Assembly: GCA_020438905.1 (NCBI GenBank) | Contig: JAGQTQ010000071.1 | Span: 30,926 to 66,165, forward strand | Direction: 5' to 3' | Source: Mycobacterium sp. | GTDB taxonomy: Bacteria > Actinomycetota > Actinomycetes > Mycobacteriales > Mycobacteriaceae | Length of the DNA: 35,240 nt | Notes under the pieces: generated by a model | Seen by the model: the letters and a program-made list of their open reading frames with translations, nothing else | The model's database searches: none | Told to the model about the DNA's origin: nothing | Made by a program: the position numbers and the translations under genes | In this document: in pieces, positions 21,313 through 21,718 of the stretch | How the letters are laid out: each line of letters opens with the position of its first letter | Position numbering within the stretch: the first letter of the stretch is position 1

Positions 21313-21328
21313 CGTGATTTAGATCACA
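21313..21328. promoter_or_regulatory. CRP/cAMP-receptor binding site upstream of rpfA
   Basis: CGTGATTTAGATCACA matches TGTGANNNNNNTCACA at all specified positions but the first, giving the dyad GTGA-N6-TCAC. In M. tuberculosis the CRP homologue Rv3676 is known to control rpfA through a site of this type. It is two bases downstream of the moaD stop. Confidence 0.8.
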
Positions 21329-21338
21329 TCACGAACAG

Positions 21339-21358
21339 GTCACAGCGTGGCCACAGGG
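21339..21358 (+). promoter_or_regulatory. MtrA-like direct-repeat site upstream of rpfA
   Basis: GTCACAGCG (21339-21347) equals the published MtrA box, and a second imperfect copy GCCACAGGG (21350-21358) lies eleven bp later, one helical turn. MtrA is the response regulator for cell-wall and resuscitation genes in mycobacteria. Confidence 0.55.
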
Positions 21359-21425
21359 TGATCAAGTCGGCCTCCCACCAGGAGTAACGCTGGGCTTTTA
21401 GAGTCCCATTAATATTTGCCAGCTG

Positions 21426-21443
21426 GGAAAACGCCTGTTTTCC
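21426..21443. promoter_or_regulatory. Dyad GGAAAAC-N4-GTTTTCC in the rpfA leader region
   Basis: A perfect 7-bp inverted repeat with a four-base loop, followed by AAAAA. It could be an operator or an RNA hairpin. Nearby A/T-rich hexamers TAGAGT (21399-21404) and TAATAT (21410-21415) are the best -10 candidates of the region. Confidence 0.35.
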
Positions 21444-21510
21444 AAAAAGGTGACGCTTTCTTAGGCACGCATTACCGTCCTTGGTGGCCCGCCCCTCACC
21501 GGGGCAGGGT

Positions 21511-21718
21511 CCTCTCCGCTCCTCGCGCCGAGCTCCATCCACCGGAGCGGAGGGAACAACGACACATCCCGGATGGAGACGGGGGACCCAACCGGTCCAC
21601 CGAATCAGGACCAGGAGCCCCGGCTCCTAGGGGTGAAGCCGCCGGCGTCGAGGCCGCGGCCGGGCACATCCTCCCGCCCGAACCCGACAGCTGACCCCGC
21701 AGGCGCGCCCGAGAGAGG
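21511..21718 (+). ncRNA. c-di-AMP riboswitch (ydaO-yuaA type) of rpfA
   Basis: Conserved blocks of the class occur in order: GGAACAAC (21553-21560), ACGGGGGACCCAA (21579-21591), GGGGTGAA (21630-21637) and CCCGAACCCGACAGCTGACC (21677-21696) followed by CCGCAGGCG. P1 is CGCGCC (21524-21529) paired with GGCGCG (21702-21707), and an outer helix CCTCTC (21511-21516) pairs with GAGAGG (21713-21718). The last strand is the rpfA ribosome-binding site, eight bases before ATG 21727. In this class c-di-AMP binding stabilises P1 and usually turns expression off, so ligand would hide the ribosome-binding site here. A nine-bp alternative hairpin (21514-21522 with 21544-21552) excludes the outer helix. Confidence 0.88.

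What the first reader, a model, noticed from the sequence alone, without database searches (positions are those of the whole stretch)
21313..21718. cAMP, MtrA and c-di-AMP inputs stacked before rpfA
A near-perfect CRP site (21313-21328), an MtrA-like direct repeat at one helical turn (21339-21358) and a c-di-AMP riboswitch (21511-21718) all lie in one 415-bp gap. The CRP and riboswitch elements are each known for rpfA in related bacteria, but their combination with an MtrA box suggests that two cyclic-nucleotide signals and a wall-stress kinase are integrated on one peptidoglycan hydrolase.
Basis: partly seen in the sequence, partly recalled or inferred. Interest (0 to 1): 0.75.

Follow-up and report, generated by a model that had tools for sequence, protein, structure and literature searches.

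The report
rpfA leader with weakened c-di-AMP switch

Summary
In the 415-nt gap before rpfA there is a CRP-type palindrome (21313-21328, one mismatch), an 11-bp-period MtrA-type repeat, and an RF00379 hit above threshold (45.2 against 38 bits). The combination is not new: CRP, MtrA and c-di-AMP are each reported for mycobacterial rpfA, and the triad for Corynebacterium nlpC.

What the comparison adds: (1) the aptamer's loop-tail pseudoknot falls on the ribosome-binding site: CCUCUC with GAGAGG in 69 of 76 anchored Mycobacterium leaders. (2) The aptamer tracks DisA, the c-di-AMP synthase. In the family sample 104 of 104 genomes with a DAC domain carry RF00379, against 2 of 17 without. In Mycobacterium the core CCGAACCCGACAGCT is kept in 57 of 57 DAC-positive leaders, 4 of 26 DAC-negative. 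In 21 of 29 DAC-negative genomes radA abuts lpqE without disA.

The window keeps disA but is the one DAC-positive leader of 57 with an altered loop; its sister L032 shares the change and lacks disA. Reading: an ordinary c-di-AMP OFF-switch, weakened in a lineage that keeps discarding c-di-AMP.

The parts
21313..21328 (+). CRP-type palindrome CGTGATTTAGATCACA
   Evidence: 1 mismatch to TGTGA-N6-TCACA; at most 1 mismatch in 77 of 77 DAC-positive or untested leaders and 15 of 28 DAC-negative leaders
21328..21355 (+). Three MtrA-type half-sites at 11-bp period: ATCACG 21328-21333, GTCACA 21339-21344, GCCACA 21350-21355; the first shares one base with the CRP site
   Evidence: sequence; conserved columns; half-sites 1 and 2 stand at this offset from the CRP start in 75 of 77 and 26 of 28 leaders; motif form from PMC6265350 and PMC11215152 passages
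21508..21516 (+). GGTCCTCTC, complementary to 21713-21721 over the SD; this 9-bp helix is the window's own, a shorter CCTCTC stands at a similar place in some relatives
   Evidence: MFE fold; top helices per leader: not in L032; 6-7 bp at about -224 to -235 in L037, L039, L041, L043, L045, L088, L090
21525..21706 (+). c-di-AMP riboswitch aptamer (RF00379), true 5' strand of P1 included; P1 = 21525-21529 with 21702-21706
   Evidence: RF00379 45.2 bits at 21550-21720; named helices pair in 99.8% of cells in an alignment of 36 DAC-positive leaders, 25 cells changed on both sides
21666..21675 (+). Apical loop ACATCCTCCC; consensus of relatives has CCTCTC here, the 5' strand of the pseudoknot
   Evidence: its hairpin 21660-21680 folds with z -2.32
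21711..21719 (+). GAGAGAGGA: Shine-Dalgarno sequence and 3' strand of the pseudoknot; TCCTC (21669-21673) can pair GAGGA (21715-21719)
   Evidence: GAGAGGA strongly conserved; 69 of 76 leaders pair CCTCTC with GAGAGG; window pairing
21727..22845 (+). rpfA, 372 aa, transglycosylase domain PF06737
   Evidence: ORF; Pfam 110.4 bits

Best explanation
This is the orthologous rpfA control region of mycobacteria in an uncultured Mycobacterium. CRP and MtrA act on transcription from abutting sites. The mRNA leader carries a c-di-AMP OFF-switch of RF00379 type without a terminator: when c-di-AMP is bound, the aptamer's loop-tail pseudoknot closes on the Shine-Dalgarno sequence, which is itself the tail strand, and translation of rpfA stops. 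In the window this pairing is weakened or re-registered (UCCUC with GAGGA instead of CCUCUC with GAGAGG). The lineage belongs to a clade in which disA, the c-di-AMP synthase gene, has been deleted repeatedly and the switch then decays, while CRP and MtrA sites largely persist. Shown here by sequence: the sites, the aptamer, the complementarity, disA absence and synteny, the association. Inferred: ligand binding, SD blocking, direction of regulation, number of losses, order of events.
For: RF00379 45.2 bits. In 36 DAC-positive leaders P1, P2, core and apical helices pair in 100% and the pseudoknot in 99.1% of cells; 25 cells changed on both sides against 7.3 in shuffles. Loop-tail pairing beats shuffled loops and tails: mean 5.73 against 4.73, SD 0.11, largest of 2000 shuffles 5.14 (88 distinct cases); outside Mycobacterium 5.74 against 4.91 (62 cases). 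No terminator-like site on the + strand between aptamer and ATG. The crystallised ydaO RNA has the same kind of loop-tail pairing (my reading of the sequence in PMC5393176); PMC9960051 reports a translational effect and proposes a CTCC-GGAG RBS pseudoknot for C. glutamicum nlpC; the review PMC10907184 lists ydaO among riboswitches whose docking hides the RBS (passage). Co-occurrence with DAC: family 104 of 104 against 2 of 17; genus, at E up to 0.001, 176 of 177 against 15 of 21; the one DAC-positive miss, G306, has only a weak, partial RpfA match. Aptamer core 57 of 57 against 4 of 26; SD-pairing loop 56 of 57 against 5 of 26. radA next to lpqE without disA in 21 of 29 DAC-negative genomes. 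Window disA: domains present, in the radA-lpqE place, and in a DisA tree beside the rhodesiae/M26 group, the sister group in the MoaA+MoaD+RpfA tree too.
Against: No binding or expression data for this organism. The P values treat related genomes as independent. The tree has no outgroup; one search rooted it arbitrarily on L070 and counted 21 untested genomes as DAC-positive: 6 Fitch changes or 10 all-negative clades, one of them (L049/L196) perhaps an assembly gap, since radA is missing too; a node inside the window's clade has support 0.433. Aptamers survive in some DAC-negative genomes: L033 at 71.6 and L036 at 48.5 bits, L049, the two leprosy-type genomes keep the loop, and G033 and G054 keep RF00379. 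G247 is DAC-positive with an intact loop yet scores lower than the window, so a low score alone shows nothing. Many DAC-negative genomes are MAGs. Within Mycobacterium the SD hardly varies, so pseudoknot pairs there show no double changes, and the count of further pair types is below the shuffles (10 against 10.9). The stretch 21656-21726 folds worse than shuffles (z +1.85). The M. smegmatis study and the Streptomyces review report transcript-level effects. In the 11-genome DAC-negative clade the CRP site has 2 mismatches, so the transcriptional inputs are not untouched.
Confidence: 0.62

Rival explanations
1. One reading: a fully working three-signal integrator (cAMP, MtrB kinase, c-di-AMP) on rpfA in this organism.
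For: All three elements present; disA, mtrA and Crp/Fnr-type HTH proteins are in the genome (which of the last is the CRP orthologue was not determined); the aptamer blocks tested other than the loop are intact.
Against: The SD-pairing loop keeps only 3 Watson-Crick pairs and one G-U of six in the family register; its sister lacks disA.
Confidence: 0.25
2. The window riboswitch is already dead: c-di-AMP no longer controls rpfA here although disA remains for another purpose.
For: Only DAC-positive leader of 57 with an altered loop; change shared with L032, which lacks disA.
Against: The other conserved aptamer blocks tested are intact; a 5-bp alternative pairing UCCUC-GAGGA exists.
Confidence: 0.3
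3. The switch acts on transcription (early termination), as reported for Streptomyces rpfA.
For: Streptomyces rpfA termination (PMC10117811 passages); rpfA transcript lowered in M. smegmatis with high c-di-AMP (PMC9338955 passages).
Against: Only 20 nt lie between P1 and ATG and no terminator-like site is found there; lowered mRNA can follow from blocked translation.
Confidence: 0.15
4. An upstream anti-SD (21508-21516) has taken over from the pseudoknot, or competes with it, as SD blocker.
For: Perfect 9-bp complement in the MFE fold; a 6-7-bp CCTCTC-type complement at a similar place in seven relatives.
Against: Not among the best helices of L032 or of most leaders; overall fold energy not unusual.
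Confidence: 0.12

Closest known systems
Mycobacterium rpfA c-di-AMP (ydaO/yuaA, RF00379) riboswitch
   Same: Same gene, same leader position, same family; core blocks shared with relatives (PMC6009663 and PMC9338955 passages)
   Different: Window loop that pairs with the SD is altered
C. glutamicum nlpC leader (GlxR + MtrA + EsrR + c-di-AMP riboswitch)
   Same: Same three kinds of input on a cell-wall hydrolase; translational action and RBS pseudoknot proposed (PMC9960051 passages)
   Different: Different hydrolase family; no EsrR site was looked for here
Streptomyces coelicolor rpfA leader
   Same: c-di-AMP riboswitch on rpfA, with cAMP and ppGpp inputs as cited in PMC9960051
   Different: Reported to act by transcription termination (PMC10117811 passages)
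M. tuberculosis rpfA promoter (CRP, MtrA)
   Same: CRP control and MtrA binding reported
   Different: That promoter was not compared base by base here

Membership tests
c-di-AMP riboswitch RF00379 | Covariance score above the gathering threshold | tested here: met
   45.2 against 38 bits
c-di-AMP riboswitch RF00379 | P1, P2 and conserved core (GGGGGACCC, GGGGTGAAG, CCGAACCCGACAGCT) | tested here: met
   window positive for each; helices paired
c-di-AMP riboswitch RF00379 | Loop-tail pseudoknot | tested here: inconclusive
   family register 3 WC + 1 GU of 6 pairs; alternative 5-bp register
c-di-AMP riboswitch RF00379 | Binds c-di-AMP and changes expression | not testable with these tools
   needs bench work
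Mycobacterial CRP target | TGTGA-N6-TCACA-like palindrome at a conserved place | tested here: met
Mycobacterial CRP target | CRP binding in vivo | not testable with these tools
   for M. tuberculosis rpfA known to me by report only
MtrA target | Degenerate direct repeat, 7 bp with 4-bp spacer (11-bp period) | tested here: met
   against the motif
MtrA target | MtrA binding | not testable with these tools
   MtrA is encoded in the genome (387.5 bits); binding not measured
Terminator-type (B. subtilis ydaO) expression platform | Intrinsic terminator after the aptamer | tested here: not met
   no + strand terminator-like site between the aptamer and the ATG

The most novel reading that the evidence does not exclude
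Mycobacteria have given up c-di-AMP signalling several times (disA missing between radA and lpqE), and the rpfA riboswitch then decays, often in the loop that grips the ribosome-binding site and in the CAGCU core while the outer helices last longer, and while the cAMP and MtrA sites largely remain. The window is caught in transit: the grip was loosened in its ancestor while disA was still there, so weakening of the target may precede loss of the signal.
Probability: 0.45. Interest if true: 0.7.

Novelty: new member of a known kind. Interest (0 to 1): 0.55.

Why it matters
A 2026 paper calls DisA-made c-di-AMP essential for viability in mycobacteria (PMC12977524, introduction passage). Here 21 of 198 sampled genomes of the genus have no DAC domain, and 21 of the 29 DAC-negative genomes examined show radA next to lpqE with disA gone. 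These are natural knockouts with which to ask what c-di-AMP does, and the rpfA leader is an RNA target whose decay goes with the loss. The tail strand of the aptamer being the SD gives a simple, testable mechanism without a separate expression platform.

Tried and rejected
Upstream anti-SD GGTCCTCTC as the expression platform of the family: not supported, since the 9-bp helix appears in no other leader's best helices, though seven relatives have a 6-7-bp version at a similar place; kept as a minor rival.

CRP match as significant by itself: rejected.

Regain of disA by transfer in the window: not favoured, not excluded. Its DisA stands beside the rhodesiae/M26 group as its other genes do (midpoint-rooted DisA tree of 21, no supports printed, the M26 row partial). 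L032's RadA ends with residues like the end of DisA (RPL-stop beside RLL-stop); the pairwise alignment scattered the gap, so this rests on the printed ends.

DAC absence as assembly gap: rejected for 21 genomes with radA and lpqE adjacent; open for G428 (other neighbour), G200 and G240 (contig ends), and G167, G189, G225, G229, G433 (no radA match). Gene names lpqE, can and ispD are recalled from synteny, not from a call. That G307 is the one unlisted DAC-negative genome is inferred from its absence among the listed matches; its radA-lpqE locus has no disA. Naming the 11-genome clade: not achieved.

Rows dropped: L073 and L082 (short leaders); L193 and L196 as duplicates of L106 and L049 (they are still counted in the 28 and in the tree); G142 and G240 without an rpfA-type hit; L073, L186, L187, L190 from the tree. 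The DAC check of named genomes took 50 of the 71 asked for (two of the 50 had been tested); 21 and L082 stay untested. One search used 36 of the 57 DAC-positive leaders, and its structure was drawn from such sequences.

Full report
1. What is there. The window is a 35-kb piece of an uncultured Mycobacterium genome (3.69 Mb, 189 contigs, 84.9% complete; genus from its relatives). The gap 21312-21726 separates moaD from rpfA (372 aa, PF06737 110.4 bits). The CRP-type palindrome at 21313-21328 has one mismatch; one such match in the window is unremarkable by chance (mean 0.58). The MtrA-type repeat is GTCAC-N6-GCCAC at 21339-21354; a third half-site ATCACG (21328-21333) stands 11 bp before it and shares one base with the CRP site. 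RF00379 matches 21550-21720 with 45.2 bits.

2. Conservation of the DNA sites. In an alignment of 79 leaders the blocks CGTGATtT.cgTCACATaACG and GgTcACga..tGgC.AC stand out. Of 77 DAC-positive or untested leaders all have a CRP site with at most 1 mismatch, and 75 have the MtrA-type half-sites 1 and 2 at the same offset. Of 28 DAC-negative leaders (two of them duplicates) 15 have at most 1 mismatch, 12 have 2 and one has 3; 26 keep the repeat offset. The 12 with 2 mismatches are the 11-genome clade, where the left CRP arm is changed, and one leprosy-type genome; the one with 3 is the other leprosy-type genome.

3. The aptamer. Rfam places the 5' end too far in. GCGCC at 21525-21529 pairs with GGCGC at 21702-21706; its outer pair is G-C in 26, A-U in 6 and G-U in 3 of 35 rows. 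CTCCATCC (21533-21540) pairs with GGATGGAG (21571-21578). The loop between these two strands is 30 nt in the window, which would explain the misplacement and part of the low score. Between P1 and the ATG there are 20 nt and no terminator-like site.

4. The pseudoknot is on the SD. In 69 of 76 anchored Mycobacterium leaders the apical loop CCTCTC is complementary to GAGAGG of the SD; close variants account for three more; the other four are the window, L032, L047 and L083. In other genera of the family the loop is often TCTTCC, the tail GGAAGA, and a separate GGAG follows a few bases on; the rpfA-type copies L186, L187 and L190 have CCTCTC/GAGAGG as in Mycobacterium. True loop-tail pairs beat shuffled ones (5.73 against 4.73, SD 0.11; 88 distinct cases). 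The T. tengcongensis-type ydaO RNA printed in PMC5393176 (passages; source organism recalled) has CUCCUUCG in the loop and CGAAGGAG in the tail, by my reading of its sequence, so the pseudoknot itself is known; PMC9960051 (passages) proposes SD blocking for C. glutamicum nlpC, and PMC10907184 (passage) lists ydaO among riboswitches that hide the RBS by docking.

5. The window's loop is altered. In the family register the window forms C-G, U-A, C-G and one U-G, with two mismatches; a shifted register gives UCCUC-GAGGA, 5 bp. L032, the sister (RpfA domain 96% identical; branch support 1.0), has CATCCTGG.

6. The synthase. PF02457 (DAC, the domain of known c-di-AMP synthases, recalled) is in the window's genome but in none of the 8 named MAGs of its clade; the three further clade members from the genus sample, G123, G241 and G307, lack it too. 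In the genus 21 of 198 genomes lack it, among them seven single-contig genomes of 99-100% completeness. Of 50 further or repeated named genomes 49 have it. Next to radA the window genome has radA-disA-lpqE. Of 29 DAC-negative genomes searched, 21 show radA followed by lpqE without disA, 3 are cut or rearranged, 5 gave no radA match.

7. Co-loss. Genus: RF00379 at E up to 0.001 in 176 of 177 DAC-positive and 15 of 21 DAC-negative genomes; matches with E below 1e-12 in 137 of 177 against 0 of 21 (read from the tables, tested). The DAC-positive miss, G306, has no rpfA-type hit (best E 6.9e-27 over residues 35-116). Family: 104 of 104 DAC-positive genomes and 2 of 17 DAC-negative ones have RF00379; five genera lack both in every sampled genome (1 to 6 each). 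Both wide RF00379 searches used stricter filters that lose weak matches. Leaders: CCGAACCCGACAGCT 57 of 57 against 4 of 26; SD-pairing loop with SD 56 of 57 against 5 of 26; GGGGTGAAG 57 against 13; GGGGGACCC 57 against 15; the P1 and P2 strings do not differ significantly. The Fisher P values (2e-16 for the core, 5e-14 for the loop) ignore kinship. On a MoaA+MoaD+RpfA tree without outgroup, rooted arbitrarily and with untested genomes counted as positive, DAC loss needs 6 Fitch changes or 10 losses without regain, one doubtful (L049/L196); the window lies inside the DAC-negative MAG clade (support 0.994), though one node inside has 0.433. The exceptions L033 (all strings kept) and L036 (loop kept, core lost) fit recent loss; the leprosy-type pair keeps the loop but not the core strings.

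8. Order of events. Window and L032 share the loop change, and the window has disA, so the change came before L032's deletion if disA was inherited by descent. DisA of the window stands beside the same lineage as its other genes, which favours descent. In L032 RadA ends with residues like the end of DisA, which fits a recent deletion there.

9. Known or new. CRP, MtrA and c-di-AMP on rpfA, and the triad on nlpC, are in print. [quoted passage not shown] In the listings I saw no title or abstract start that reports disA loss with riboswitch decay; those searches cover open PMC papers only and most listed papers were not read. The element itself is a new member of a known kind; the co-loss pattern is the part worth following.

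Noticed in passing
window 21377-21400, 21430-21440, 21448-21455, 21472-21480: Further conserved blocks in the leader between the MtrA-type repeat and the aptamer (ACCTGcG.aAACgCTG, AAACGCC, aAggTGACG, GtTACCGTC); they may hold the promoter and other sites.
   Followed up: no
L106: Record titled Bifidobacterium breve MAG carries a mycobacterial rpfA region that groups with the window's clade; the label looks wrong.
   Followed up: partly
L193 (G225) and L106: The leader is about 200 nt shorter than in the window: CRP and MtrA-type sites remain but the aptamer strings are gone.
   Followed up: partly
G033, G054 (genus g3 of the family sample): Two genomes without a DAC domain that still carry strong RF00379 hits.
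   Followed up: no
   Followed up: partly
Genera g2, g5, g8, g23, g29 of the family sample: The sampled genomes of these genera lack both the DAC domain and RF00379.
   Followed up: no
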